Virus record (IMG/VR): IMGVR_UViG_3300035211_000056
Span: 1 to 59,880 of that record
Reading direction: 5' to 3' (one strand)
Length of the DNA: 59,880 bases
From: a virus
In this document: in pieces, positions 1-59,880 of the stretch
Numbering within the stretch: position 1 is the stretch's first letter
How the letters are laid out: every line of letters starts with the position of its first letter
Notes under the pieces: generated by a model
What the model saw: only the letters and a program-made list of their open reading frames with translations
The model's database searches: none
Told to the model about the DNA's origin: nothing
Made by a program: the position numbers and the translations under genes

Positions 1-46
1 GTTTAGTATAAATACCAGTTATATTTGACGGAAGATTAAGTGACAT
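1..46 (-). CDS. baseplate J-like protein (Mu gp47 type), 5' fragment
   Basis: The start codon lies at 46-44 and only the first 15 codons are present before the window edge. They are identical to the start of the complete gene at 56974-58293. The fragment shows that the window begins inside the baseplate operon and that gp47 would be continuous if the ends were joined. Confidence 0.85.
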   Translation of the reverse strand, partial: MSLNLPSNITGIYTK

Positions 47-127
47 ATATCCCTCGCTTAAAAATTCAAACTCGGGATAAATCTATTATAACATATATTA
101 AAAATCAGTGTTAAGCCATAATTGATA
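1..127. repeat. 127-bp terminal direct repeat, left copy
   Basis: Bases 1-127 match 58248-58374 exactly. The first mismatch is at base 128 (C here, T at 58375). The segment covers the first 46 bases of the gp47 coding region, its promoter and leader, and the end of the gp46 gene. Beyond it the two copies are similar but diverged. An exact 127-base overlap is what a de Bruijn assembler run at k=127 leaves at a branch point. Confidence 0.95.
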
Positions 128-541
128 CGTGTAATTATCCGTGATACCATTCGGTTTACTAATTGCTATGTCAAGCTGAATTCCATCATCCGTGAAAGAC
201 GCTTCTGTATTGACTTCTGAGGCATATCCTTTATCAATAAGCCATTGCAGAGCGGTATTACAATATTCAGTTCCGAGATTTAATTTATCCTGGGTTTTCC
301 TGCCGTTTACCAGCCATAAATAAGAAAACTGCATACCCGTGATATTTACAGCCCAGTATCCGCCCCGTTTAAACGGTTGCGGCACTTGTTCCTCAGTTGC
401 CCTTTCGTTTAAGAACAAACTCATTAATATTGCAGTTTCAAGGCCGTCGTCTTGAACGAAATCTCCTGAATCATCGTCAAAATCAATATCAAAGACTCCG
501 TCAGTTTCAACAATTTTTATTTCGCCTGATAAATCGCTCAT
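98..541 (-). CDS. Mu gp46-like baseplate protein
   Basis: This 147-residue protein resembles the phage GP46 family: an acidic start with an FDDDSGD stretch, then GLETAILMSLFLNERA, a GRKTQDKLNLGTEY segment and a C-terminal beta region. In Mu-type tails it forms part of the baseplate wedge beside gp45 and gp47. Its ATG is one base from the end of the spike gene, so the two are translationally coupled. A second copy at 58345-58788 is about 93 % identical (10 differences in 147). The family is recognised by pattern and gene order. Confidence 0.8.
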   Translation of the reverse strand: MSDLSGEIKIVETDGVFDIDFDDDSGDFVQDDGLETAILMSLFLNERATEEQVPQPFKRGGYWAVNITGMQFSYLWLVNGRKTQDKLNLGTEYCNTALQWLIDKGYASEVNTEASFTDDGIQLDIAISKPNGITDNYTYQLWLNTDF

Positions 542-542
542 T

Positions 543-1061
543 TTATTCTGGCTCCTCCGTATTTACGTTAATGCCGGTTACAGCTCCTGTAGGTGGTCCA
601 CCTGGAACAACAGTAACCGATGTCTCTAAATCAGGCAATGGGTGCGTATGTGTTTTTAAACTTATTCCATCTGCCACAACATCGCCACCTGTAACTATTA
701 TATCACAATCTGTTGTTACTTGGTTTGCAGATATAACAACATCTTTTTCAGTTGTTATATTTATGTTTCCGTCTTCATCGAATTTTATAACTGATCCAAC
801 TTTGAAATTACCAGTTTCAAACTCTCCCTCTTTTAGATTTTTATTCCTGTCAAAAGCAGATAATGGAATTATAAATCTATTTGCTTCATTACCATTTAGA
901 CAAAATAATAAACAAGGTGAATTTTTAGGAGGTGATCCGTGCGTACCATAAGATTCACAAACAAGAGAATCAACAAGTTTTTCTAGATATGTTATCTGAA
1001 CATAAGGAAACAAACTATCGTCTTTCATTTCTTTTTTTGTTTTTGCAAGTTTAATCGTCAT
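543..1061 (-). CDS. baseplate spike protein (Mu gp45 / P2 gpV type)
   Basis: This 172-residue protein is the likely central membrane-piercing spike. Near residues 137-140 it has an HTH triplet (His-x-His) in the context SLKTHTHP. In Mu gp45 and P2 gpV, HxH motifs of the trimer coordinate an iron ion at the spike apex. The preceding stretch has alternating beta repeats (INITTEKDVVISANQV). After the HxH motif comes a Pro/Gly-rich tail that differs completely from the second copy (58788-59264). It lies between the hub (gp44) and gp46 genes, as in Mu. Confidence 0.82.
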   Translation of the reverse strand: MTIKLAKTKKEMKDDSLFPYVQITYLEKLVDSLVCESYGTHGSPPKNSPCLLFCLNGNEANRFIIPLSAFDRNKNLKEGEFETGNFKVGSVIKFDEDGNINITTEKDVVISANQVTTDCDIIVTGGDVVADGISLKTHTHPLPDLETSVTVVPGGPPTGAVTGINVNTEEPE

Positions 1062-1062
1062 A

Positions 1063-2172
1063 TCATAATCCTAATTGAGAAAAAATATCGTCTTTCTTGT
1101 TAAATTTTGACTCGATTCCTTTTTGCTGTTCTTCAAGGGTAAACGCATCTTTGTTTACCAAACTTATATCTGTAAACGTACCATCAAGCGATTTTATATA
1201 TCTGCAAGATTTAATTAATAATTCAGCATCAATTCCGAACCTTTCATCAATAACTTGGATTAAATTATTAGGTTCTATTAACACCGTACTTTTTGCATCA
1301 AGATAAAAGCCTCTTATTCTGCAATTATACTGAAATCCTTTTACACGTCTTATGTTTGATTCCCATTTTGCCCGGTCTGAGTTTGTTTGCAGATCACTTG
1401 ATATGTCCGAATTAATAACCATTATGCGGCCGGCCCTTATATTTAAATCCTGTGCTAAACTTTTTTTGGAAACCGTCGAATCATTAAATAACTGGTCTAT
1501 GGGATTTCCCTGAGAGATAACGATATATTCCCGGAATCTTGAAGCGTCATTGTCTTCAAAATCAGAACGCAATATATTATTTTCAGTGCCTCCGATTTCT
1601 TTTTTTAAAATGGTTGTATATTTACCTGATCCTGCCCGTGTTAATATAACATCACCGTCGGAGTTACTTGTTATTAATAATTGCCTCATTCTGCAAAATT
1701 TTTGCAAAAATTCAAACGCATTATCCCCTATTTTCGCACTGGCAAGTTCGGATTTTGAAAATCTGCGGACCGTTAATCCTTGTTGCATTTTTACATTAAT
1801 ACCTGTTATTCCTAAGGATCCGAGAACTCTTTTAAACATTGTAAGTATATCAACAGATGTCTTAAAATCTATGTCACTTTTTATATAGCTATCAACAAGG
1901 TCCTGAACCTTGTCCCTACCTCTTAATCGTATTTCTGTAGTTTCCGGATCAGAATAACCGCCTATGCTATTTGTAAATCCGGTCATTACTTTATTATCAT
2001 CAATCCAGATTTCGCACTCATCACCCTTTGATAACGGAAAAACATCAGCAGCAGTATTGCTTGCCTTAAAATTAAATTCTCCTGCCGCAGAACCTAAGGA
2101 CCGGAAGAATTCCATATAAGTAAAGTTATGATATAGGTTTCCGTTTACGTTTATGCTTAATAAATTACTCAC
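1063..2172 (-). CDS. tail hub protein (Mu gp44 / P2 gpD type)
   Basis: This 369-residue protein has the fold pattern of the phage late-control D/gp44 family: an N-terminal domain with GDECEIWIDDNKVMTGF, then LRGRDKVQDLVDSYIK. It forms the trimeric hub that joins tail tube and spike. Its start overlaps the end of the upstream gp43-like gene by eight bases. The 3' part is repeated in diverged form at 59267-59880. Confidence 0.8.
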   Translation of the reverse strand: MSNLLSINVNGNLYHNFTYMEFFRSLGSAAGEFNFKASNTAADVFPLSKGDECEIWIDDNKVMTGFTNSIGGYSDPETTEIRLRGRDKVQDLVDSYIKSDIDFKTSVDILTMFKRVLGSLGITGINVKMQQGLTVRRFSKSELASAKIGDNAFEFLQKFCRMRQLLITSNSDGDVILTRAGSGKYTTILKKEIGGTENNILRSDFEDNDASRFREYIVISQGNPIDQLFNDSTVSKKSLAQDLNIRAGRIMVINSDISSDLQTNSDRAKWESNIRRVKGFQYNCRIRGFYLDAKSTVLIEPNNLIQVIDERFGIDAELLIKSCRYIKSLDGTFTDISLVNKDAFTLEEQQKGIESKFNKKDDIFSQLGL

Positions 2173-3337
2173 TTAATATTTTAACGCTCCCTTTAATAAA
2201 TCCCGGGTCATACGGCTGATTTAAATAAAATAAATCATCGTATTTATCAATGTCTCCGTAATTATCATATGCAAGCAACAAGATACAAGTCGGCTGTACC
2301 GTTGTTGTTGTCACGTCTGCAAGGTCAAGGCTATCAAGATATGCTAATGTATTTGTCCTTAATGTATCAAGTTCAGCAATTACATCATTATCAAGGTCCT
2401 GCTTAATGTCTTCATATTGATCTTCTATTTCTGCCCTGGCAACCGCAAGCTCATCATCATTTGCAAATTCAATCTGTGATATAGTACCGTATGCCATAGC
2501 AAGAGCATTTACGTTTATGCAATCGTTTATTGCCTTAAATGTTTTTTTACGTTCAATATGGGCCATTGTGTCTTCATTAATTGTATCGTCTTCAGCACCA
2601 AAACTAAACATAGATTTCCATATTTCTAATTGAGATTTATTATCACTTGATGCAAAACTAAATGTATTAAATAGATTTTTTAAAGCAAGTCCTAATGTTG
2701 CTGGAGCTACAGCATAACTTGCAATTTTATCTTGAAAATCAAGTATCCCCTCATTAAGTTCATTTGCCTTATCCGCAACTTTGTATGTCAAAGATGCTGC
2801 ATTATCAAAAGTATCAAATACATCATTTAATTTAGTAGCCGTAAGTATTGCATTATCGCTGAAAACTGCGGTTAGTGAGTCAAAACCATCCTCAATCACG
2901 CCAAGAACTGTATCAATACCTCTTAAAATCAAAGGCTTTGTATTTTCGGAAGTATCAGGATATGACGGGTTGCTGGCCTGTTGAAATGTTACAGTAAATC
3001 CGGAAATACCGAATCTTTTATCCATTTCTTTTAATTCGCAACTTATTGCAGCACATAGTATTTCACCCTGGTACGGGTGTACCAGTTTTCCAAGACTAGG
3101 TTCTTCAAGCTTTTGTTTAAGCCTGTTTCTTTTTTCAAGTAGTGATGGTCCCTTAACATATAAATCAATTTGAAACTGATCTTCTGCCAAACCTAAAAAT
3201 TCAACCTCAGTCCTGTTTGAATCCGGGTATTGATGCGGAACTGTTTTCTGCCCGAACCTGATACTTGAGTTTTCTATCAGTACAGAAACTCCCTTATATT
3301 TTGCTTGTCTTAGTCTTCCTAATAGTGCTAAATCCAT
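2165..3337 (-). CDS. DNA circularisation N-terminus family tail protein (Mu gp43-like)
   Basis: This 390-residue protein starts with LLGRLRQAKYKGVSVLIE and has GKLVHPYQGEILC near residue 100. Both are typical of the DNA_circ_N domain found in Mu gp43 and related tail proteins between tape measure and hub. The middle is helical (residues about 180-340, rich in Asp, Glu and Ala). Position 3' of the tape measure and 5' of gp44 matches Mu. Despite the family name, a structural tail-tip role is most likely. Confidence 0.78.
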   Translation of the reverse strand: MDLALLGRLRQAKYKGVSVLIENSSIRFGQKTVPHQYPDSNRTEVEFLGLAEDQFQIDLYVKGPSLLEKRNRLKQKLEEPSLGKLVHPYQGEILCAAISCELKEMDKRFGISGFTVTFQQASNPSYPDTSENTKPLILRGIDTVLGVIEDGFDSLTAVFSDNAILTATKLNDVFDTFDNAASLTYKVADKANELNEGILDFQDKIASYAVAPATLGLALKNLFNTFSFASSDNKSQLEIWKSMFSFGAEDDTINEDTMAHIERKKTFKAINDCINVNALAMAYGTISQIEFANDDELAVARAEIEDQYEDIKQDLDNDVIAELDTLRTNTLAYLDSLDLADVTTTTVQPTCILLLAYDNYGDIDKYDDLFYLNQPYDPGFIKGSVKILSE

Positions 3338-3351
3338 ATTAAAACCTCTAG

Positions 3352-5040
3352 TTATTGACCCATATTAAAGCCTAAATTAAAAGGCAAACCTTCGTTTGTT
3401 GATGAATAATTTTTAATCATTTTCCCTGGATCGTGAAAATAGATATTAACATCTGATTTCCCTTGATTAACTGGCGTATAATTAATATCTGATTGTTCTT
3501 TTTTCCAAAAATCTCTGTTTCTTATTAGTTTATCCCTCTCTCTAGACTTAACTAGGGATCGTCCACCTTCGTACATTGCTTGTCCTATTACTTTGAAACC
3601 ACCTATTGGTAATGATTTAAGTAAAAATCCTACGTCACGCATTATTTTATAAAATCCTATAGCAAAATTATTCATCAGATCATTTACTCTTTGTATAACC
3701 CAATATACATACATAAATGCACCAGCAATAATAAGAACAGATTTCCCGGCAGTTAATAATACAGTACTACCTAATATTTTAACTATATACGACAAAACTA
3801 ATGCAACAGGCGTTGATATTGCAACAATAGCACCGAATCCAGTTATTAATTTTCTTATATCTGGATCTATATCTTCTAATGTTTTTGAAAGTTCTTTTGT
3901 TTTGTTGTTTATCATTTCTACATATGGAGCCAAATCTTCTCCTAATAATTTACTTATTGCCGAAAAGCTACCTCTTAACATTTTTAATTGCTGATCGGTT
4001 GATTTTAAATTTCTGTTGTATGCGTCTTGTAGTCCAGTGTTTTCTATTGTGTCTTTAGCTATTTTTCTCATTGATCTATCAATTATATCAAGTTTATCAG
4101 AAGATAACGTCATTAATCCTGTAAAAGCTCTTATATTAGGTATTGCTAAATCAAGGGCATCTGGATATTTTTTATTTGCAACAATTACTTGTTCAAGAAC
4201 TTTTCTTAAACCAACAGCCTTTATCTGCGTCCTTCCGTGTGCTATCCCTAATTTTTCTAATATTTTTCGTGCTTGTGTTCCCGGCTTAGATAATGCACTT
4301 AAAGCACCTCTTAAAGCTGTCGTAGCCTCATCAGTGCTTAAACCTCCAAGTGTTACAGCAGACATTGTACTTAATAATTCTTCAAAACCTACGCCTGCGA
4401 CTTTAGCAATAGGAGCAACCTTACCGACGTTATTTGCTAACTCCGATACAGTAGTTTTACCAAATATCTGTGCAGAATAAAAAGCATTTGCTACATCGCT
4501 TGCTTTTGTTGTTTCTCTCCCGTATGCGTTCACAACTGATGTTATACCGTCAAGAGACGTGCTTAATTCAGCATTACCACCTATTGCTAGTTTTTGTGCT
4601 TGTTCATAAGCGTTAAATGCCTGATTGCCTGATCCTAATGCAGATACAGTATCAAATAATCCCTTGTTTGAATCATCAATAGTAAAACCAGTTTTTACAG
4701 CCTGTAATTGTAAAGAATTTAATTTACCTGTATATTTTGTTATTTCATCTTTTTCCATAAGTCCCTGAACATTTAATATACCTCTTTCCATCTTTGCGAA
4801 ATTTCTTACAGATGCTACACCTATTGCAGTCGCAGCTAGTGATGCATATCTCATGTTGTTACCAAAACTTCTTATTTTACTACTTGCCATAGACGTTTTC
4901 TGAGAAAAAGTTTTAGCCTTATTTCCTGCACCTGAAAAAGCACCATCCAGACCCTTAACGTTTTTCTTAATAGTATTAAGATTCTGAGACATCTTGTCTA
5001 TAGCTTCAAAAATATATGCAACTGAATAATTATCGGCCAC
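3352..5040 (-). CDS. tail tape measure protein
   Basis: This 562-residue protein sets tail length and is packed inside the tube. The N-terminus is helical (AIDKMSQNLNTIKKNVKGL). The family core, with ALGSGNQAFNAYEQAQ and TTVSELANNVGKVAPIA, spans about residues 75-340. Strong hydrophobic segments follow at about 395-450. It starts with GTG at 5040, which overlaps the last codons of the chaperone-extension frame (5030-5146). It is short for a myovirus tape measure, so the tail should be short to medium in length. Confidence 0.88.
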   Translation of the reverse strand: MADNYSVAYIFEAIDKMSQNLNTIKKNVKGLDGAFSGAGNKAKTFSQKTSMASSKIRSFGNNMRYASLAATAIGVASVRNFAKMERGILNVQGLMEKDEITKYTGKLNSLQLQAVKTGFTIDDSNKGLFDTVSALGSGNQAFNAYEQAQKLAIGGNAELSTSLDGITSVVNAYGRETTKASDVANAFYSAQIFGKTTVSELANNVGKVAPIAKVAGVGFEELLSTMSAVTLGGLSTDEATTALRGALSALSKPGTQARKILEKLGIAHGRTQIKAVGLRKVLEQVIVANKKYPDALDLAIPNIRAFTGLMTLSSDKLDIIDRSMRKIAKDTIENTGLQDAYNRNLKSTDQQLKMLRGSFSAISKLLGEDLAPYVEMINNKTKELSKTLEDIDPDIRKLITGFGAIVAISTPVALVLSYIVKILGSTVLLTAGKSVLIIAGAFMYVYWVIQRVNDLMNNFAIGFYKIMRDVGFLLKSLPIGGFKVIGQAMYEGGRSLVKSRERDKLIRNRDFWKKEQSDINYTPVNQGKSDVNIYFHDPGKMIKNYSSTNEGLPFNLGFNMGQ

Positions 5041-34083: not shown

Positions 34084-34451
34084 AACAGGTGAGGTTGAAA
34101 ATAGCAGTATTCTTTGATTTTAGCAAATATGACAAGCGTAAAAGAGTATATGTCGATATTGAAACAGATGAGTATAATAACCTTACAGACGAGATACACA
34201 AAGTTTTAGAAACCAAGATAGATATATATGCAAGTAAATGTAGTCTATGGGGATTAAATGCACTAAAACCAGGCGAAACATTCGAGAGCGTGTTAGAGGC
34301 ACTCTGGGAGTATCAATTAAGTCTTATACCAAATAAATATGGAGTAGGAGTGTTTAAATTTATTTATAACGAGAACAGGGAAGCGATAGCTTGTTTCTAC
34401 GACCCTGAAACTCGAATCATAACTATCACAAGCTGGGAGGGGGAAGCATGA
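34080..34451 (+). CDS. hypothetical protein
   Basis: This 123-residue protein starts at TTG 34080 after AAGGAGGGTG. It is an alpha/beta protein with VYVDIETDEYNNLTDEIHKV. The end overlaps the RtcB start. Confidence 0.5.
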   Translation: MKQVRLKIAVFFDFSKYDKRKRVYVDIETDEYNNLTDEIHKVLETKIDIYASKCSLWGLNALKPGETFESVLEALWEYQLSLIPNKYGVGVFKFIYNENREAIACFYDPETRIITITSWEGEA

Positions 34452-35593
34452 AAGTATTTAATTTCGATAAAAAAATAGTAAAAAGCTGGTGTAATGAGCC
34501 GGAAGATGGAGCTATAGAACAAGCAAAGAGCTTAGCTAATTTACCATTTATTTATAAGCATGTTGCATTGATGCCTGATACGCATCAGGGATATGGTATG
34601 CCTATTGGTGGGGTAATAGCGTGCAAAGAAGTGATAATTCCTAACGCTGTAGGTGTCGATATAGGTTGCGGTATGTTGGCTGTTAGAACCAGTTTAACAA
34701 ATTTAGAAACTAATAAATTGAAATCAATAATGAATGAAATAAGAAAGCTTATACCTGTTGGATTTGAACACCAAAAAGAAGCTCAAAAAGAATCATTAAT
34801 GCCTGATGAAAGATATGCAGGTAAAATTGTAAAAGAACAATATAATTCTGCATTAAAACAACTAGGAACGCTAGGCGGTGGGAATCATTTTATAGAGATA
34901 CAAAAAGGATCGGATGGTTTTGTTTGGTTTATGTTACATTCAGGTAGTAGAAATTTAGGCAAAAAAGTAGCTGATTGGTATAATAATGAGGCTAAATGTA
35001 ATAATGATATGTATTTTTCTTCTGTTCCCAAAGAATGGGATTTAGCATTTTTGCCACTTGAAGATGCAGGAAATTATTTAGACGAAATGAGATATTGCTT
35101 AGATTTTGCTCTTGCAAATAGAAAACTTATTTCTGAAAGAGTACAAGAGGCATTTATTAATATTTTACCAGATGTATCTTTTAAAGACGAAATAAATATA
35201 CATCATAATTATTGCCGAATAGAAAACCACTTTAATCAAAACGTATGGATACACAGAAAGGGTGCTACTTCTGCGAAAAAAGGAGAATTAGGAATTATTC
35301 CGGGAAGCCAAGGAACTAAATCGTATATAGTTGAAGGATTAGGAAATCCAGACAGCTTTATGTCTTGTTCACACGGTGCTGGTCGTAAAATGGGAAGAAA
35401 ACAGGCTCAAAGAAGTCTAAACTTGTTAGAAGAACAGAAAAAATTAGACGGGATATTACACTCAGTAAGAACACAAAAAGACCTTGATGAAGCAAGTGGA
35501 GCATACAAAGATATTAGTGTAGTGATGGAAGAACAAAAAGATTTAGTAAAAATAGTTACAGAACTAACGCCACTAGGAGTTATTAAGGGATAA
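34448..35593 (+). CDS. rtcB: RtcB-type RNA ligase
   Basis: This 381-residue enzyme joins RNA 2',3'-cyclic phosphate or 3'-phosphate ends to 5'-OH ends using GTP and Mn2+. The metal and guanylylation residues are visible: Cys in GVDIGCGM, His in GGGNHF, His in HSGSRNLG, HH in IHHNYC and the GMP-accepting His in SCSHGAGRKMGR. The start has MPDTHQGYGMPIGG. All key residues are kept, so it is likely active. In a phage it could repair tRNAs cut by host anticodon nucleases. Confidence 0.93.
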   Translation: MKVFNFDKKIVKSWCNEPEDGAIEQAKSLANLPFIYKHVALMPDTHQGYGMPIGGVIACKEVIIPNAVGVDIGCGMLAVRTSLTNLETNKLKSIMNEIRKLIPVGFEHQKEAQKESLMPDERYAGKIVKEQYNSALKQLGTLGGGNHFIEIQKGSDGFVWFMLHSGSRNLGKKVADWYNNEAKCNNDMYFSSVPKEWDLAFLPLEDAGNYLDEMRYCLDFALANRKLISERVQEAFINILPDVSFKDEINIHHNYCRIENHFNQNVWIHRKGATSAKKGELGIIPGSQGTKSYIVEGLGNPDSFMSCSHGAGRKMGRKQAQRSLNLLEEQKKLDGILHSVRTQKDLDEASGAYKDISVVMEEQKDLVKIVTELTPLGVIKG

Positions 35594-39251: not shown

Positions 39252-41180
39252 ATGAAATTTAGCTATATAGTTCCTACTTACAGGCAAGTAGAATTAAACG
39301 AAACATGCTTAAAATCTTTAAGAGAATTTCACCCTCATTCTGATGTAATATTAGTTTCTGACGGTGACAATAAAAACACACAATTAAAATTAAAAAAGAT
39401 ATGTGATAAATATGGTGCAAAATTATTATGTTCTTTTTGGAATAATTATTTTGCACATTCTGTAAATAGAGGTATGGACGCTGCCGTTGATTCTGATGTT
39501 GTTGTCTTATGTAATAACGATATTATTTTTACTCAAAACATTGAAGAAGAAACACAAAACATATTTGAAAATGACCCGTTAATCGGAGTTGTCGGATATT
39601 TATTGTATTACCCAAACGGCAGAATACAGCACGGCGGTATGAAGCGATTAACGCATACTCATTTATTTGCACATCACGATCACGGAAGCCAGGTAAACGA
39701 AGCTGATAAATCATTGATATCAAGATACTCAATAGGTTGCACAGGAGCATTGTTGTCTATACGCAGGGATTTAATTAACGAAATAGGAGTTATGAAAACT
39801 GGTGGCGGTATAGCAAATGAAGACACTGAATTTTGTTTAAGAACCTGGCATTGTGGATATAGAATATATTATACCGCAGATGTTTCAGCAATACATGCAG
39901 AAGGATATACAAGAGGACGTACACCTACAGAGAAAAAGAAAACAGGACTAGATCAGGCAGAAATACTTTCAGGGCAACAATTAAAAGAAGATTGCAAAAG
40001 ATTTGATATTGATAATATCGAAAAAAGGATTTCTGAACTTAATGGTGATGAATACACGAAACATGAATCTGATATTAATTTTAAAAAGAAAAGAATAGGA
40101 CTGACAAGAACTAACGCACTAGGAGATTGTATTTGTCTTACCGGGATAATAAACAAATTAAAAACCGATAATCCTAATTCAGAAATATATGTTGCTACAA
40201 AAGAGCCGTGGCCATTTGAAAACAATCCTACTATAAAAGGAATAGTTGACGATAAAAAATATATAAAAAACCACGCTGATGAAATAATTGATCTTGATTT
40301 GTGTTATGAAAAAGAACCGCATAAACCTATTTGGAAATCATATGCCGATAAAGTTTTTGGTGAAAATAACTATAATGAATTTGATATTAAACCATATCTT
40401 TTTACTGAACGTAAAGACAGGATGAGTTTATTAATTAAACTTAAAAAAGAAAAGGCTTTTATCGGAAGCAATTATGTTGTTATACATGCTGGCGGTAATA
40501 CTTGGGAAGAGAGAATTATTGATAAAGATATATGGACAGAGGTTTTTGATTATCTTATCGTAGAAAAAAAATACAAAGTCGTTGTAGTAGGAAAAAAAGG
40601 AGATTTAGAATATCAATCTTTTTTATTTGCTAAAGAAAAAACACAACAAGGATTTAATCTTATAGATAAATTAACGCTTACAGAAATACATCAGTTAATA
40701 ATTAATGCTGAAATGTTTATCGGTATTGATTCAGGTATTTTACACATAGCACAATGCACGAATACAAAACTAATAGGTATATTTACTGTTGCTGATCCAA
40801 CAAAGAGAATACATCGTCAACATTTTACAAAAGTTGTTGAGCCGGTATCAGAATGTAAATACTGCTTAACATACAAGATCAAACCTCCAGTTACAACAAT
40901 GAAATGTGAGACAGGAAACATGGAATGTAAAAAAAGCATAACGGCTGATATGATTATCGAAGCTGTGAAAAGTTTTGATATTGAAGATAATAACGCTGAT
41001 GGTTTTGCTATACCTAAAGAGTTATATAAAGAACTCATGGGAAACAAATATTTAGTTGGATATTCACCAGATGATTCAATAAAACTAGATACAGAATATT
41101 TTTATCCGACTAACACACCAGAAGAAAGAGAACAAGCATACAAAGAAATAATAGAAAATGATAAAAACAACAAGGAATAA
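39252..41180 (+). CDS. GT2-GT9 fusion glycosyltransferase
   Basis: This 642-residue protein contains two glycosyltransferase domains. Residues 1 to about 250 are a GT2 (GT-A) domain: FSYIVPTYRQVELNETCLKS, VVVLCNNDIIF near 85 and ANEDTEFCLRTWHCGYR. From about 277 to 580 is a GT9/heptosyltransferase domain: IGLTRTNALGDCICLTGI, VVIHAGGNTWEERI and MFIGIDSGILHIAQCT. The fusion suggests two successive sugar additions by one polypeptide. Confidence 0.82.
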   Translation: MKFSYIVPTYRQVELNETCLKSLREFHPHSDVILVSDGDNKNTQLKLKKICDKYGAKLLCSFWNNYFAHSVNRGMDAAVDSDVVVLCNNDIIFTQNIEEETQNIFENDPLIGVVGYLLYYPNGRIQHGGMKRLTHTHLFAHHDHGSQVNEADKSLISRYSIGCTGALLSIRRDLINEIGVMKTGGGIANEDTEFCLRTWHCGYRIYYTADVSAIHAEGYTRGRTPTEKKKTGLDQAEILSGQQLKEDCKRFDIDNIEKRISELNGDEYTKHESDINFKKKRIGLTRTNALGDCICLTGIINKLKTDNPNSEIYVATKEPWPFENNPTIKGIVDDKKYIKNHADEIIDLDLCYEKEPHKPIWKSYADKVFGENNYNEFDIKPYLFTERKDRMSLLIKLKKEKAFIGSNYVVIHAGGNTWEERIIDKDIWTEVFDYLIVEKKYKVVVVGKKGDLEYQSFLFAKEKTQQGFNLIDKLTLTEIHQLIINAEMFIGIDSGILHIAQCTNTKLIGIFTVADPTKRIHRQHFTKVVEPVSECKYCLTYKIKPPVTTMKCETGNMECKKSITADMIIEAVKSFDIEDNNADGFAIPKELYKELMGNKYLVGYSPDDSIKLDTEYFYPTNTPEEREQAYKEIIENDKNNKE

Positions 41181-43762: not shown

Positions 43763-44412
43763 TAATTATTTGTGGCTTGCCACGAACTGCCAGCTCGTTC
43801 CTATGCCAATGGTTTAAAACCGAAGGGTCACAAATGACTCCGAAATGCTATTCGGATCATTTACCGACTGATTATACGCAACAAAAAAATATTAAATATC
43901 AATTATGCGAACCGCTTAGATTAACTCACGAAATGACATTTAACAGAAATTACGTACACGATCAGATAATTGAAGAAATTAATTTTATAGAAAAACACAA
44001 TGTAAAGTTAGCAGAAGGAAAAGAACAGATATTAAAACTGGCCCCTATGGTTTTTTATAAATACTGTCTGCATAGATTCGATACTGTAATAATATGTATA
44101 CGTGATCAAGAATCATGGATTCAATCAGCAAAGAATCATGGTACATTTAATTGGATTTATAAAGTAAAGCCTAACTGGATACCGGATAATATTTATTTTC
44201 GTATTATAAATTCGATTAATCCAGAACTATTATTTTATGAATATTGGCGTCACGAGAGTAAAAAAACATTAAGTTATTGCGTTAGAAATAAAATTAATTG
44301 TCTTATTTATAGATACTCAGACGATGAATCATTTGCAGAACTGCATAAGTTTTTTGGGCTTGAACCTAAGAAGCATGAAGATTACAGTTATTGGTTAAGT
44401 AGGCGGTTTTGA
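43759..44412 (+). CDS. sulfotransferase-like P-loop protein
   Basis: This 217-residue protein resembles PAPS-dependent sulfotransferases. A 5'-phosphosulfate loop LPRTASSF lies at residues 5-12 and a 3'-phosphate-binding motif IRDQESWIQSAKNHG near 115-129, with the expected Arg and Ser. It would move sulfate from PAPS to a glycan or protein. The next gene encodes an APS kinase, the enzyme that makes PAPS. It overlaps the homing endonuclease stop by four bases. Confidence 0.68.
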   Translation: MIIICGLPRTASSFLCQWFKTEGSQMTPKCYSDHLPTDYTQQKNIKYQLCEPLRLTHEMTFNRNYVHDQIIEEINFIEKHNVKLAEGKEQILKLAPMVFYKYCLHRFDTVIICIRDQESWIQSAKNHGTFNWIYKVKPNWIPDNIYFRIINSINPELLFYEYWRHESKKTLSYCVRNKINCLIYRYSDDESFAELHKFFGLEPKKHEDYSYWLSRRF

Positions 44413-44414
44413 TT

Positions 44415-45329
44415 ATGGCAAAATGCTATTTCTTCACAGGCTTATCAGGTTCAGGAAAAACAACTCTTGCAAGAGAATTAAACAACCGTATACATGCTGT
44501 TTGGTTAGATGGTGACGACATAAGAAACACCCCTATCGTTGAAAATCCGCAAGATTTCAGTTTTGAAGCCAGAGCAAAACATATCAGGCGATTAGGTTAT
44601 ATTGCCAAAATGTTTATTGACCAGAATATAAATGTAATTATAAGTTGTATAGCTCCTGACCGTTCAGTCAGAAACGAAGTAAGAGGATATTTTAAGGCTG
44701 ATGAATTTGTCGAAATATATGTAAAAACACCGCTTGAAATATGCGAACAAAGAGACTGTAAGGGATTATATAAGCGTGCCAGAAACGGAGAAATACAAGA
44801 TTTTACAGGTATTGGATCAAGATATGAGGAGCCTTTGAATCCTGAATTTGTTGTTGATTATGAAAAGTTAGAAAAAGGATCAACGATAGGAAGATTACCG
44901 CTTGTTATAGCTAGTCAGTTTATAAACGTAATACCAAGACCTATTTGTTTCCTTATCGGACGTTTTCAACCTCTAACACTAGGTCATATTGAATTAATAA
45001 ACAAAGCACTAGAAACTTATCATGTGATAATAGGTGTTAAATTTACAACAATAAATATGAATAATCCTTTTACACCAAATCAAATAAAAAAACTTATACG
45101 TTCAGTATATCCAGATATTGAAATTCAAGTAATACCAGATTTTGATTTCATCGGTCATGGACGTAATACAGGCTATTCAATGAAAATGATTGATGTTGAT
45201 AATTACATTAAAAATATTTCTGCAACGCATGTAAGAAATTTAATAAGAGAGAATAATCGTTATTGGAAATTATATGTGCCAGAACAAGCTATACCTATTA
45301 TGGAGGAGGTAATTAAATGCAAGAAATGA
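44415..45329 (+). CDS. APS kinase / nucleotidyltransferase fusion
   Basis: This 304-residue protein has two domains. Residues 1 to about 170 match adenylylsulfate kinase closely: P-loop GLSGSGKTT (9-17), WLDGDDIR, then RDCKGLYKRARNGEIQDFTG and SRYEEP. Residues about 178-300 form a small nucleotidyltransferase: GRFQPLTLGH near 182 and ISATHVR near 268, like NMNAT/NadM or cytidylyltransferases. APS kinase makes PAPS. The second domain could be an adenylyl- or cytidylyltransferase and is far shorter than ATP sulfurylase. Some APS-kinase homologues act on other nucleotides, so the substrate is inferred. Confidence 0.85.
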   Translation: MAKCYFFTGLSGSGKTTLARELNNRIHAVWLDGDDIRNTPIVENPQDFSFEARAKHIRRLGYIAKMFIDQNINVIISCIAPDRSVRNEVRGYFKADEFVEIYVKTPLEICEQRDCKGLYKRARNGEIQDFTGIGSRYEEPLNPEFVVDYEKLEKGSTIGRLPLVIASQFINVIPRPICFLIGRFQPLTLGHIELINKALETYHVIIGVKFTTINMNNPFTPNQIKKLIRSVYPDIEIQVIPDFDFIGHGRNTGYSMKMIDVDNYIKNISATHVRNLIRENNRYWKLYVPEQAIPIMEEVIKCKK

Positions 45330-45472
45330 TAAAACAATCTTTTTTGTGTGTATGTTTAATATGCGGTGTCTTTTTTTTGGTTAAGTCAAATTGCGAAATT
45401 AGTATTAAATACATAATCGGATTAATTTTTTTATCGATATACGCAAATATAACATATATGAGAGGTAATTAA
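45317..45472 (+). CDS. 51-residue membrane protein
   Basis: This short product has two hydrophobic stretches (FLCVCLICGVFFLVK, YIIGLIFLSIYANI). The start region GAGGTAATTAAATGCAAG is repeated exactly at the start of the next gene, suggesting the gene arrived by a duplication at its borders. SD GGAGGAGGT. Confidence 0.5.
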   Translation: MQEMIKQSFLCVCLICGVFFLVKSNCEISIKYIIGLIFLSIYANITYMRGN

Positions 45473-46192
45473 ATGCAAGTAGTAGCCAGCACCAGACCCA
45501 ACCGACCTTATCTTAAAAACGCTGATATTATCAGAGTAAATGGAGCTTATATATTTTCTGATGAGTTAATTAAAATGTGCGAGATGTACAGAGACAAACC
45601 TTTATTTGTTGACATACCTACAAAAAGAGAAAAAGTTAATATATCAAATATTAACGTAGCTGATGTTATTTCTATATTAAAAACAAAACATGAATTAAAT
45701 CCAGAGATAAAAGATATAATAGCTTTTTCAAAAGTAGAAACTCATGTTGAATTATTATTAGGTAGTCACTTTCTTGCATGTGCAAAAATAGAATCAATAT
45801 CAGGTGTATTTGGTATGCATGCAATAGCAAAAGAGGCTGACATTATTTGCATTGACAGAATAGATCTTATGAATGAAATAAAAGACATCAAATCATATTT
45901 CGCTTATGAAGATGCAATAATAAATATCGCTCAACAACACAACAAACAAGTTTTTATAGCAAGCGATATTTTACCAACAATGATAAAAGAAAAAAACATA
46001 ACATTCCCTGAAATGACACAGCTTAAATATTACAGAGATAAAAACATAGACGCTGTAATACTTGCAGAAGAAACGGCAGTCGGTTTTTATCCTTATCACA
46101 CAATTGATATTGTAAAAAAGATTGTTAAGAAGAAATTAAAGGTACATTTTTCAACAAAAATGACGGAGGTAAGTAATGGCCAAAAAGTATAG
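45473..46192 (+). CDS. shortened pyruvate-kinase-like barrel protein
   Basis: This 239-residue protein matches the pyruvate kinase catalytic barrel but lacks the B and C domains (usual length about 470). Retained landmarks are DIIRVNGAYI (cf. RMNFSH), AKIESISGV with catalytic Lys and metal-binding Glu, and RIDL in place of RGDL. ASDILPTM and LAEETAVGFYP are also present. It may act on phosphoenolpyruvate or a related substrate, or have another function. It lies two genes after the sulfotransferase-like gene. Confidence 0.78.
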   Translation: MQVVASTRPNRPYLKNADIIRVNGAYIFSDELIKMCEMYRDKPLFVDIPTKREKVNISNINVADVISILKTKHELNPEIKDIIAFSKVETHVELLLGSHFLACAKIESISGVFGMHAIAKEADIICIDRIDLMNEIKDIKSYFAYEDAIINIAQQHNKQVFIASDILPTMIKEKNITFPEMTQLKYYRDKNIDAVILAEETAVGFYPYHTIDIVKKIVKKKLKVHFSTKMTEVSNGQKV

Positions 46193-52714: not shown

Positions 52715-53074
52715 ATGCGTATGTGGATGGTAAATCCTGAGATATTATGCAATGTACATCTCGGTGGAGAATATTGCGAATTTTATAAGCATAGATGGAC
52801 ATTTGAACGCAAATTTAGAAAAGATGGATATATTAAAAATAATTGCTTAGAACCTAAATCAATGCAAGCCAGGCATGACGAATTAGTTATTGAACGCAGG
52901 AAAAGAGGTTTAAAAGCAAAGGGCACATTTATAGCACCTGATATTTCTTATTTACCGGAATGGCAACAGAATTATAAAGTAGATGTAAAGAAAAACTTAA
53001 AGAAATTACTAGCCAGGTGTGAAAAATGCAGGGAACGATATAATTTGATAATTATTAAAGGAGGTAAATCTTGA
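52715..53074 (+). CDS. pyrimidine-dimer glycosylase-like protein (putative)
   Basis: This 119-residue protein begins MRMWMVNPEILCNVHLGGEY and has EPKSMQARHDELVIERRKRG. This start and the RHD motif are common in phage proteins annotated as pyrimidine dimer DNA glycosylase-like. It may act in DNA repair. The C-terminal half is basic with CEKC. Identification is from pattern memory only. Confidence 0.5.
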   Translation: MRMWMVNPEILCNVHLGGEYCEFYKHRWTFERKFRKDGYIKNNCLEPKSMQARHDELVIERRKRGLKAKGTFIAPDISYLPEWQQNYKVDVKKNLKKLLARCEKCRERYNLIIIKGGKS

Positions 53075-53325: not shown

Positions 53326-53952
53326 ATGGATAACGTCGTAGAATTAATCTTATGTAAAGTAATAAGAAAAATTAAGTATTTTTTACACATAAACATTAAG
53401 TATTTTTTATATAATTCCGATAATTCATTCATGGCAAATTTTATCATGAAGAAATTATTTTTAATGTTAGTTTTAGTTATCGTTGGGGTTGGGTGCGGAA
53501 AAGATCCTGTTCAGGTAATTAAGGAATGCGAGATTGATGAAGCTTTTAAATCTCATGCTGAACTGTTTTATAGTTACTCTTATAAACAAGATTGTGTACC
53601 TATTAAATTTACAGAAGGATTAAGTCAAGGAACAAATGAAGTCAGGGGAATATGTGATTATGAAAACAAGATTGTAGAGATTAATCCTGATCTTTACAAT
53701 GAGGCATCTGAACTTAGACAAGAAATGATAATTTTGCATGAACTAGGTCATTGTGTCTTAAACCTTATGCATAATAATACAACTATTTATTTCAGAGATG
53801 AAAATAATGAGTTGATAGTCACTGGAATAAGCTTAATGCATGAGTCATTATTTATTGATGAAAGATACTATGAAAAAAACAAAGACAAATATTTATCTGA
53901 GTTTTCTACACCTAAAAAAAGAGAAGACGGAGTAATTGAATTTTCATTATAG
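53326..53952 (+). CDS. lipoprotein with HELGH zinc-peptidase motif
   Basis: This 208-residue frame starts at ATG 53326 after a strong SD (AAGGAGG). A lipoprotein signal (MKKLFLMLVLVIVGVGCG) begins only at residue 41, so either a 40-residue extension precedes it or translation starts at 53431 or 53446. The extension encodes two similar units (KYFLHIN, KYFLYN). The mature part has ILHELGHCVLN, a zincin HExxH motif near residue 140. It may be an envelope peptidase. Confidence 0.7.
   Translation: MDNVVELILCKVIRKIKYFLHINIKYFLYNSDNSFMANFIMKKLFLMLVLVIVGVGCGKDPVQVIKECEIDEAFKSHAELFYSYSYKQDCVPIKFTEGLSQGTNEVRGICDYENKIVEINPDLYNEASELRQEMIILHELGHCVLNLMHNNTTIYFRDENNELIVTGISLMHESLFIDERYYEKNKDKYLSEFSTPKKREDGVIEFSL
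53343..53362 (+). repeat. 20-bp repeat shared with 55177-55196
   Basis: The sequence attaatcttatgtaaagtaa occurs here, inside the start of the lipoprotein gene, and again at 55177-55196 in the noncoding region. Within the gene a second direct repeat, attaagtatttttta, lies at 53371 and 53395. Confidence 0.7.
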
Positions 53953-53971: not shown

Positions 53972-54364
53972 ATGAACAAAAATTTATTAATCAAGATTTT
54001 TTTCAGTGTGTCTATGTTGTTTTTTGTTTTTATGATTTCTTTTGCCGTAATGACAGAAAAAAAGAATAACACAATAAAACAAAAGAAAGAAATTAAACAT
54101 TATTCAGACACAGTTAACGAAGGATATTTTGCGTGTCTGTTAGAAACAGATTATGATACTATTCTTACTTTTTCAGCAAACAAGGATAAGAGAGGTATAA
54201 AATCAATGCTAAAGTCAGGTGTTTGTATAATAACAAAAGGTGGTTTAAATTATTCTATAATAGATTCTGGTATCTTTACATATAAAATAAGAATATATAC
54301 TAATACAGGTGAATATTTAGATTTTTGGGTTCCTTTTGAGGCTATCAAAAACAATAAAAATTAA
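53972..54364 (+). CDS. membrane-anchored protein
   Basis: This 130-residue protein has one N-terminal membrane helix (KIFFSVSMLFFVFMISFAVM) and a beta-rich exterior part. SD AAGGAG. Last gene of the accessory operon; the terminator follows. Confidence 0.5.
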   Translation: MNKNLLIKIFFSVSMLFFVFMISFAVMTEKKNNTIKQKKEIKHYSDTVNEGYFACLLETDYDTILTFSANKDKRGIKSMLKSGVCIITKGGLNYSIIDSGIFTYKIRIYTNTGEYLDFWVPFEAIKNNKN

Positions 54365-56973: not shown

Positions 56974-58293
56974 TTAAATACTCCACGTAGTGCCGTCATA
57001 AGTTGATAATTCATCATCGTCAGGGTCGATATCTCCTGACGGTGAATCTAATGTAAATGTACTTACTCTTTCTAAAGTGCTTGGATCTACTGTATTTGCT
57101 ATTACTCCTAAATAAGCAGCCTCGGTAATTGTTTCTCCAACTTCTGAACGTTCTAAAAATAAAGCCTCCAAATTTGCCTCAATTGCTGCCCTCATTGTAG
57201 ATGTATCAGGATCTAAAGCACTGAACGTAAAAGCAATTGCATTTTCGCTAGGTGCTGAAACTATTATAATTGTAAAATCACAATTTATTGGTAAATAAGG
57301 TTCAAAAAAAGCTTTAGCAGTTGTTATTTCTCCTGCACTTGGTATTCCGTTATCTTCTTTTACAAGATATATAGTTGCATTTCCAACAGCAGGGGTGACA
57401 CGTTTTATAAAAACTCTTTTTACCCAGGATAAAGTTAGAAATCTAGCTTCAACTTCTGCAGAATTAAAAAAGGATGATGGGTTTTTCTTTCTTTGTTGTA
57501 GTCTTGGTCTTAAATCTGTGTCACTTTCTTCATCTGTTCCACCTGTTATTTCTGTATATACAACAACAGCCTCGTTATCTATGTTTTCTAATGATGCACC
57601 AATTGTAAGAACTTCACCAGAACCAAGATTATAATCTTCTCCGAACCCATCACTTGTTACAGCAACAACAGCATTACTATATGTAGATATACCTGAATCA
57701 GATCCCGATCCCGCTATATCAGCAGTATATGATAATGTTGTTGCAGATAATACACTGACTTCAAAATCTCCATTAAGTTCAGAATTGCTCATCCCTGATA
57801 CTGTTATTTCCTGACCTGTTCCTAATCCATGAGCAACCAATGTTTTATGATCTTCATCAGAATAAAAAGTTAATGTAACAACTCCATCGTCATAAGCTGC
57901 TACAACATAATACGATTTTTCGCTAATATCAGTATCGGTATCAACGGTATAAACTAAAGAGTTAATAATAAATTCTGTGCCTAACGGGACGGTTTCCCCT
58001 GCCGTACCCATGACGCTGATATTTCCTTTTGCTACCGTTGCAGAATTTCTTGTAATACCATAATCTGCACATTCTCTTTCAAGATAAATACCGGTTCTTG
58101 TATCGTCAAACATCTGATCGATAAATGCTTCAACCTGTTTATAGTAATCCCATACACGGCCAGCAAACGATACCAGTATTGCTTTTGTTAAAGAATTTTT
58201 CTTAAAAGGATTTGCTTTTGTGATTAAAGACTTAACATCATTTGCAAGTTTAGTATAAATACCAGTTATATTTGACGGAAGATTAAGTGACAT
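56974..58293 (-). CDS. baseplate J-like protein (Mu gp47 type)
   Basis: This 439-residue baseplate wedge protein starts LNLPSNITGIYTKLANDVKS. FDDTRTGIYLERECADYGIT, typical of the J family, lies near residue 63. A beta insertion (about 130-210) has NAVVAVTSDGFGEDYNLGSG after it. The conserved core has GGTDEESDTDLRPRLQQRKK. The first 15 codons are repeated at 1-46. Confidence 0.88.
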   Translation of the reverse strand: MSLNLPSNITGIYTKLANDVKSLITKANPFKKNSLTKAILVSFAGRVWDYYKQVEAFIDQMFDDTRTGIYLERECADYGITRNSATVAKGNISVMGTAGETVPLGTEFIINSLVYTVDTDTDISEKSYYVVAAYDDGVVTLTFYSDEDHKTLVAHGLGTGQEITVSGMSNSELNGDFEVSVLSATTLSYTADIAGSGSDSGISTYSNAVVAVTSDGFGEDYNLGSGEVLTIGASLENIDNEAVVVYTEITGGTDEESDTDLRPRLQQRKKNPSSFFNSAEVEARFLTLSWVKRVFIKRVTPAVGNATIYLVKEDNGIPSAGEITTAKAFFEPYLPINCDFTIIIVSAPSENAIAFTFSALDPDTSTMRAAIEANLEALFLERSEVGETITEAAYLGVIANTVDPSTLERVSTFTLDSPSGDIDPDDDELSTYDGTTWSI

Positions 58294-58374
58294 ATATCCC
58301 TCGCTTAAAAATTCAAACTCGGGATAAATCTATTATAACATATATTAAAAATCAGTGTTAAGCCATAATTGATA
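58248..58374. repeat. 127-bp terminal direct repeat, right copy
   Basis: Identical to bases 1-127. Here it lies inside the continuing contig: the gp47 gene enters from the left, and a diverged gp46-gp45-gp44 copy follows to the right. The repeat length is exactly 127 bases. Confidence 0.95.
58318..58337 (-). promoter_or_regulatory. late promoter with conserved downstream box (gp47)
   Basis: The minus strand reads ATGT TATAAT (58337-58332), six bases (AGATTT), then ATCCCGAG (58325-58318). It is the same layout as the portal and fibre promoters. It is present also at 71-90. It would start the baseplate gp47-gp48-fibre 2 transcript. Confidence 0.7.
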
Positions 58375-58788
58375 TGTATAATTATCCGTGATACCATTCG
58401 GTTTACTAATTGCTATATCAAGCTGAATTTCCTCATCCGTGAAAGATGCATCTGTATTGACCTCTGTGGCATATCCTTTATCAATAAGCCATTGCAGGGC
58501 AGTATTGCAATATTCAGTTCCGAGATTTAATTTATCCTGGGTTTTCCTGCCGTTAACAAGCCAAAGATGTGAAAATTGCATACCCGTGATATTTACAAAT
58601 AAGTATCCTCCACGTTTAAACGGTTGCGGAACCTGTTCCTCTGTTGCCCTTTCGTTCAGAAATAAACTCATTAATATTGCGGTTTCAAGTCCGTCATCTT
58701 GAACGAGATCGCCGGAATCGTCGTCAAAATTAATATCAAAGACTCCGTCTGTTTCGACAATTTTTATTTCACCTGATAATTCACTCAT
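58345..58788 (-). CDS. Mu gp46-like baseplate protein, second allele
   Basis: This 147-residue protein differs from the copy at 98-541 in 10 positions, for example YLFVN for YWAVN and DEEIQ for DDGIQ. Length and all landmarks are kept. Many DNA differences are silent, as expected for purifying selection between two functional strains. Confidence 0.8.
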   Translation of the reverse strand: MSELSGEIKIVETDGVFDINFDDDSGDLVQDDGLETAILMSLFLNERATEEQVPQPFKRGGYLFVNITGMQFSHLWLVNGRKTQDKLNLGTEYCNTALQWLIDKGYATEVNTDASFTDEEIQLDIAISKPNGITDNYTYQLWLNTDF

Positions 58789-59264
58789 TAACTTGGGACC
58801 TCCGTCTCTGCTTCGGTATTGCCTCCGCTATCTGCGGCTTGTGCGTGCGTATGTGTTTTTAAACTTATTCCATCTGCCACAACATCGCCACCGGTCACTA
58901 TTATATCACAATCTGTGGTTACTTGGTTTGCAGAAATAATAACATCTTTTTCAGTCGTTATATTTATGTTGCCATCTTCATCAAATTTTATTACTGACCT
59001 GACCTTAAAATTCCCGGTAACAAACTCGCCCTCTTTTAAATTTTTTGTCCTATCAAAAGCAGATAAAGGAATTATAAATCTGTTTGCTTCATCTCCGTTT
59101 ATGCAAAACAAAAGGCATGGTGAATCTTTTGGAGGCGATCCGTGTGTTCCGTATTGTTCACAAATAAGAGCATCAACAAGTTTTTCAAGATAGGTTATTT
59201 GAACATATGGAAACAAACTATCGTCTTTCATTTCCTTTTTTGTTTTTGCCAGTTTAATCGTCAT
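58788..59264 (-). CDS. baseplate spike protein, second allele
   Basis: This 158-residue copy is close to the spike at 543-1061 up to the HTH motif (SLKTHTHA) and then diverges completely. It has a short tail (AQAADSGGNTEAETEVPS) instead of a Pro/Gly-rich one. The tip after the metal site is thus the variable part. Confidence 0.8.
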   Translation of the reverse strand: MTIKLAKTKKEMKDDSLFPYVQITYLEKLVDALICEQYGTHGSPPKDSPCLLFCINGDEANRFIIPLSAFDRTKNLKEGEFVTGNFKVRSVIKFDEDGNINITTEKDVIISANQVTTDCDIIVTGGDVVADGISLKTHTHAQAADSGGNTEAETEVPS

Positions 59265-59266
59265 AT

Positions 59267-59880
59267 TTATAATCCTAATTGAGAAAAAATATCATCTTTT
59301 TTATTAAAAGAGTTTTCGATCGCTTTCTGCTGTTCTTCAAGAGTAAATGCGTCACGATTTACAAGTGTTATGTCGGTGAAAGTGCCATCTAGTGACTTAA
59401 TATATCTGCACGACTTTATCAATAGTTCAGCATCAATACCAAACCTTTCATCAATGACTTGAATTAAATTATTAGGCTCTATTAACGTAGTCCCTTTTGC
59501 ATCAAGATAAAAACCTCTAATCCTGCAATTATACTGGAATCCTTTTACACGCCTTATATTTGATTCCCATTTTGCCCGGTCTGAGTTTGTCTGTAAATCA
59601 CTTGATATGTCAGAATTTATAACCATTATTCGGCCTGATCTTATATTTAAATCCTGTGCTATGCTTTTTTTTGAAACTGTAGAATCATTAAATAACTGGT
59701 CTATGGGATTTCCCTGCGAGATAACAATATATTCCCTGAATCTTGAAGCGTCATTATCTTCAAAATCAGAACGCAATATATTATTTTCAGTACCTCCGAT
59801 TTCTTTTTTTAAAATTGTTGTATATTTACCTGACCCTGCCCGTGTTAATATAACATCACCGTCGGAGTTACTTGTTATTA
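59267..59880 (-). CDS. tail hub protein (gp44-like), second allele, truncated by window end
   Basis: Only the 3' part (about 204 codons) is present. It is open to the window edge and closely matches the C-terminal part of the protein at 1063-2172, with few substitutions (for example RSGRIMVINS for RAGRIMVINS). The end at 59880 corresponds to about position 1677 in the first copy. Confidence 0.8.
   Translation of the reverse strand, partial: ITSNSDGDVILTRAGSGKYTTILKKEIGGTENNILRSDFEDNDASRFREYIVISQGNPIDQLFNDSTVSKKSIAQDLNIRSGRIMVINSDISSDLQTNSDRAKWESNIRRVKGFQYNCRIRGFYLDAKGTTLIEPNNLIQVIDERFGIDAELLIKSCRYIKSLDGTFTDITLVNRDAFTLEEQQKAIENSFNKKDDIFSQLGL

What the first reader, a model, noticed from the sequence alone, without database searches (positions are those of the whole stretch)
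58248..59880. Window ends are one locus: exact 127-base overlap followed by a diverged allele
Bases 1-127 equal 58248-58374 exactly, then the copies diverge (gp46 about 93 % identical in protein, gp45 with a different C-terminus, gp44 with few changes). An overlap of exactly 127 bases is the signature of a k=127 assembly-graph branch. The gp47 gene spans the joint. The simplest reading is a circular or permuted phage genome of about 58,247 bp from a sample with two strains; 58375-59880 is then a second allele, not a second gene set. A real tandem duplication is less likely.
Basis: partly seen in the sequence, partly recalled or inferred. Interest (0 to 1): 0.65.

Follow-up and report, generated by a model that had tools for sequence, protein, structure and literature searches.

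The report
Circular phage assembly, two baseplate alleles
The record of this bacterial virus runs slightly more than once around a circular genome map, and on the second pass it picked up a different strain's version of three tail genes, so the apparent gene duplication is an assembly artefact, though it shows that two versions of the tail-spike genes exist in the sample.

Summary
Bases 1-127 equal 58248-58374 exactly. The copies then diverge and stay alignable to the record's end (1-1676 against 58248-59880). The window is a whole 59,880-base virus record. It carries a Mu/P2-type contractile-tail module, and the joint 58247→1 falls in the middle of it. Closing the circle there gives a 58,247-bp unit with the gene order 43-44-45-46-47-48, the order found in relatives, none of which duplicates gp44, gp45 or gp46. 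A toy k=127 de Bruijn graph of one circle plus one diverging branch reproduces the record base for base; k=99, 119, 126, 128 and 141 do not. Among 40 other records of the collection, end overlaps of assembler-k length (127, 141, 123, 103) are common. One, from a relative, has a 2,516-bp end overlap whose only mismatch follows 126 identical bases. Both alleles look functional; gp45 has an exchanged C-terminal tip. Raw reads were not available, so coverage and physical linkage remain untested. As biology this is ordinary; practically, such near-circular genomes escape exact terminal-repeat detection.

The parts
1..127 (.). first copy of the exact 127-base overlap: first 46 bases hold the gp47 start, then the gp47-gp46 gap, then the last 30 bases of gp46
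   Evidence: exact match to 58248-58374
58248..58374 (.). second copy of the 127-base overlap (branch vertex of a k=127 graph)
98..541 (-). gp46 (baseplate wedge, Pfam GP46), allele 1
   Evidence: PF07409 E=3.3e-15; PHROG 180
543..1061 (-). gp45-like spike, allele 1, 172 aa, C-terminus unrelated to allele 2 after THTH
   Evidence: position between gp44 and gp46 and match to the iterated gp45 profile of relatives; alignment of alleles; no Pfam or convincing PDB hit
1063..2172 (-). gp44-like baseplate hub, allele 1, complete
   Evidence: Pfam GpP-like and Gp44-like domains; PHROG 177 E=7e-58
56974..58293 (-). gp47 / baseplate J-like protein; reads through the joint, start codon inside the overlap
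   Evidence: PF04865 E=3.5e-31; coordinates
58345..58788 (-). gp46, allele 2 (93.2% identical)
58788..59264 (-). gp45-like spike, allele 2, 158 aa with a different C-terminal tip
59267..59878 (-). gp44, allele 2, C-terminal 203 codons only; truncated by the record end
   Evidence: last 46 bases of the record identical to 1631-1676

Best explanation
The record is a short-read de Bruijn contig of a phage genome that assembles as a circle of 58,247 bp. The assembler, at k=127, started at the vertex where two alleles part (bases 1-127). 58375-59880 is therefore an alternative form of gp46, gp45 and the 3' part of gp44 from a co-occurring strain, not a second gene set in the same genome. Shown: the exact k-length overlap, restoration of gene order at the joint, single copy in relatives, the same signature in a relative's record, and exact reproduction by a k=127 graph. 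Inferred: that k=127 was used, that two strains were present, and that allele 2 is the minor form.
For: The overlap is exactly 127 bases and starts at base 1. The loop unitig of 58,374 bases plus a branch of 1,633 bases, merged over 127, equals the record; the other k values tried fail. Relatives found by tail sheath: gp44 single in 32, gp45 in 25, gp46 in 24, in the order 43-44-45-46-47-48. In L004 the genes are contiguous from hub to gp48. Of 40 other records of at least 22 kb, exact end-to-end overlaps were 127 (G021, G031, G045, G051), 141 (G038, G044), 123 (G024, G035), 103 (G020), 91, 64 and 29. G015 (55,324 bp, the best gp44 match) has a 2,516-bp end overlap with one mismatch, at overlap position 127. 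CheckV's authors describe repeats of k-mer length left by assembling circular templates (PMC8116208). Both alleles show pN much smaller than pS (gp46 0.034 vs 0.37; gp44 0.034 vs 0.46), as expected of two working alleles.
Against: No reads, coverage or sample name were available. Allele 2 ends 46 bases after its last difference, not at a 127-base rejoin, so its far end is unexplained except as a coverage break. Silent divergence of dS about 0.5-0.7 is large for strains of one population.
Confidence: 0.93

Rival explanations
1. A real tandem duplication of the baseplate spike cassette (start of gp47, gp46, gp45, gp44) in one phage genome, with diverged copies that could supply alternative spike tips.
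For: Both copies are under purifying selection and differ in the spike tip. A graph branch at a genomic repeat would also break contigs.
Against: None of the relatives has the duplication. A genomic repeat longer than k would give an overlap equal to the repeat length; exactly 127, starting at base 1, would be a coincidence. The left copy has only 46 bases of gp47 and the right copy a cut gp44, so no junction between the copies is seen.
Confidence: 0.04
2. A linear genome with terminal redundancy, whose two ends carry different alleles (a classical terminal-redundancy heterozygote).
For: Same-direction repeats at both ends with different alleles.
Against: Such molecules are individual particles with permuted ends and would not dominate an assembly. 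The ends cut gp47 and gp44 in mid-gene. The exact part has a k-mer length.
Confidence: 0.02
3. A programmed variation cassette (inversion or shuffling) switching the spike tip.
For: The difference is strongest around gp45 and the adjoining end of gp44, and falls at both sides.
Against: No inverted repeat of 25 bases or more anywhere in the window. Differences are spread over many synonymous sites, as in long-diverged alleles, not a switched segment.
Confidence: 0.01

Closest known systems
Direct terminal repeats of k-mer length in metagenomic viral contigs (CheckV paper, PMC8116208, Extended Data Fig. 3b)
   Same: overlap length equals an assembler k; arises from breaking a circular template at a random place
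   Different: here the contig continues past the overlap into a second allele, so the ends are not exact repeats over their whole length and an exact terminal-repeat test fails
IMG/VR record G015 (IMGVR_UViG_3300031673_000055, 55,324 bp)
   Same: relative by tail module; more than one lap, identity over 126 bases then a variant
   Different: a single substitution rather than a diverged 1.5-kb allele; the overlap runs on identically for 2,389 bases
Mu/P2-type contractile-tail baseplate module (gp44-gp48)
   Same: Pfam GP46, GpP/Gp44-like, Baseplate_J and Gp48 domains in Mu order
   Different: gp45 is too diverged for Pfam or PDB sequence search; whole genome 58 kb with no near named relative

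Membership tests
k-mer-length circular-assembly overlap | terminal overlap length equals a common assembler k | tested here: met
   exactly 127; 127 also in four other records
k-mer-length circular-assembly overlap | the joint restores a continuous gene and the usual gene order | tested here: met
   gp47 reads through the joint; order as in relatives
k-mer-length circular-assembly overlap | reads connect the end to the start | not testable with these tools
   no raw reads held
exact direct terminal repeat (DTR) genome | the record's last bases repeat its first bases exactly (20 bp or more) | tested here: not met
   the overlap is internal at the right end; 1,506 further bases follow
strain allele (second haplotype) | both copies look functional and diverge mostly at silent sites | tested here: met
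   pN/pS values
strain allele (second haplotype) | allele 2 lies in another molecule than allele 1 | not testable with these tools
   needs reads or long reads
tandem gene duplication | two complete or joined copies in one molecule | tested here: inconclusive
   no junction between copies is present in the record; no duplication in relatives

The most novel reading that the evidence does not exclude
A spike cassette (gp46, gp45 with its exchanged tip, end of gp44) moves by recombination between otherwise near-identical co-occurring phages, so that two tip forms segregate in one population. Divergence peaks around gp45 and the adjoining part of gp44 and falls to near zero on both sides.
Probability: 0.3. 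Interest if true: 0.35.

Novelty: not a real feature. Interest (0 to 1): 0.15.

Why it matters
It prevents a false report of duplicated baseplate genes and gives a complete-length estimate (58,247 bp) for a record that an exact end-repeat test would leave as a fragment. The signature (start of contig found again for about k bases, then a variant) was seen in this record and, with a single variant, in G015, among 41 examined. A tolerant circularity test could recover such genomes.

Tried and rejected
Near and distant searches for the phage itself: no DNA match of 1-5000 in the phage records and no protein match of the sheath there. gp44 gave no relatives in viral or genome contigs by single-sequence search, nor did the portal. 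A 40-base exact probe from the overlap found no other viral contig, so allele 2 could not be found elsewhere. A PDB search with gp45 gave only weak, unconvincing acetyltransferase matches. Several literature searches for '127 bp' repeats or assembler settings found nothing usable; the CheckV paper gave the statement needed. The gp45 profile hit the reverse strand in about nine relatives; these were treated as artefacts of a repetitive sequence. G040 (126 identical bases, then mismatches at 127, 129 and 135, ending at 141) was first taken as a second parallel, but its total of 141 is itself a common k, so it is not counted as one. Metagenome contigs could not be searched.

Full report
What was checked. 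Bases 1-127 equal 58248-58374 and the next base differs. From there the two segments stay alignable to the record's end: 1-542 with 58248-58789 at 91.7% and 639-1676 with 58842-59880 at 87.4%. The stretch between them (about 543-638) is the part of gp45 that codes for different C-termini. The window is the complete record, 59,880 bases, so both ends are ends of a contig and not of a cut-out.

What the genes are. All genes concerned lie on the minus strand. gp46 has Pfam GP46, gp44 has GpP-like and Gp44-like domains, gp47 is Baseplate_J, gp48 is Phage_Mu_Gp48, and the gene after gp44 (2165-3337) is DNA_circ_N. Tape measure, sheath, capsid, protease, portal and terminase follow at 3-17 kb. GC skew and gene direction show one rightward block (about 18-48 kb) and a leftward structural block; the structural block is split by the record ends, with its two parts at 55-59.9 kb and 1-17 kb. 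The joint 58247->1 therefore falls inside the late region, in the 5' end of gp47.

Relatives. A search with three sheath sequences gave 62 loci. Profiles for gp43 to gp48 and the sheath were built from the window, L003 and L004 and iterated. gp44 occurs once in each of 32 relatives, gp45 once in each of 25, gp46 once in each of 24, in the order 43-44-45-46-47-48 where the contig is long enough. Only the window has two. Closing the window at the joint gives that order with one set. The weak second gp47 hits upstream of the sheath in several relatives are a different gene.

The overlap length. The ends of 40 other records of at least 22 kb from the same collection were fetched and compared. Exact overlaps reaching both ends had lengths 127 (four records), 141 (two), 123 (two), 103, 91, 64 and 29; two more had 126 exact bases at a small offset from the start (G029, G036). 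Lengths such as 127, 141, 123 and 103 recur and look like assembler k values. The CheckV paper describes this: terminal repeats occur at specific odd lengths that likely correspond to k-mer lengths, because assemblers break a circular template at a random place and leave a repeat of that length (PMC8116208, Extended Data Fig. 3 legend). That metaSPAdes commonly runs up to k=127 is general knowledge and was not confirmed in a held paper.

A parallel case. G015, the relative with the best gp44 match, has 55,324 bases of which the last 2,516 repeat the first 2,516 with one mismatch. The mismatch is at position 127 of the overlap, after 126 identical bases. This is again a contig that starts about k bases before a variant, goes once around, and takes the other variant.

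A model. A k=127 graph was built from a circle (1-58247) and a side branch carrying 58375-59880 with shared sequence upstream. It has two branch vertices (the fork and the artificial end) and two unitigs, of 58,374 and 1,633 bases. Joined over 127 bases they equal the record letter for letter. k = 99, 119, 126, 128 and 141 do not. This shows sufficiency, not proof: the inputs come from the record.

The second allele. gp46 has 33 silent and 12 amino-acid-changing differences, and the gp44 part about 59 and 16. Both copies are thus constrained at the protein level. Third-position differences are dense at about 700-1300 and sparse towards both sides; centre against flanks differs with permutation p = 1.5e-4, and the last 196 bases are poorer in differences than the rest (Fisher p = 1.7e-4). 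The centre and flank limits were chosen after seeing the profile, so these p values are optimistic. The left side is biased by where the fork must lie; the right side is not. This fits a cassette of older divergence within more similar genomes, but one short segment cannot separate that from uneven constraint. After the shared THTH motif, gp45 ends in unrelated residues, a longer tail in allele 1 than in allele 2. In Mu- and P2-type spikes an HxH motif near the tip binds a metal ion (general knowledge); here that role is inference only.

Remaining doubt. Allele 2 stops 46 bases after its last difference. If it were a full bubble that rejoined, the contig should end with 127 shared bases. So the branch must have ended early, most simply through low coverage. 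Reads would settle this and the tandem-duplication rival.

Noticed in passing
34448-35593: An RtcB RNA ligase gene (Pfam RtcB, E=1.5e-110) in the phage's rightward block.
   Followed up: no
39252-41180: A 642-aa protein with a family-2 glycosyltransferase domain at the front and a family-9 (heptosyltransferase-like) domain behind it.
   Followed up: no
44409-46192: Neighbouring genes with an adenylylsulphate-kinase domain (followed by a weak cytidylyltransferase-like match) and with the C-terminal part of a pyruvate-kinase barrel domain; unusual metabolic-looking genes for a phage.
   Followed up: no
53326-53952: A likely secreted lipoprotein with a weak SprT-like match and an HELGH zinc-protease motif, next to a small membrane protein (53972-54364).
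   Followed up: no
52715-53074: Small protein matching the pyrimidine-dimer DNA glycosylase family (Pyr_excise).
   Followed up: no
G015 = record of L052 (55,324 bp), ends L128 and L129: The record has a 2,516-bp end overlap with one mismatch at overlap position 127; its circular unit is probably 52,808 bp.
   Followed up: yes
G041, G047, G040, G027 ends (L228/L229, L240/L241, L226/L227, L132/L133): Near-exact end overlaps (246, 122, 141 and 126 bases) with one to nine mismatches, which a test for exact terminal repeats could miss or shorten.
   Followed up: partly
relatives, e.g. L003 4178-5278, L035 7351-8685: A gene just upstream of the tail sheath shares a weakly similar stretch with gp47, probably a small domain common to both.
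   Followed up: no
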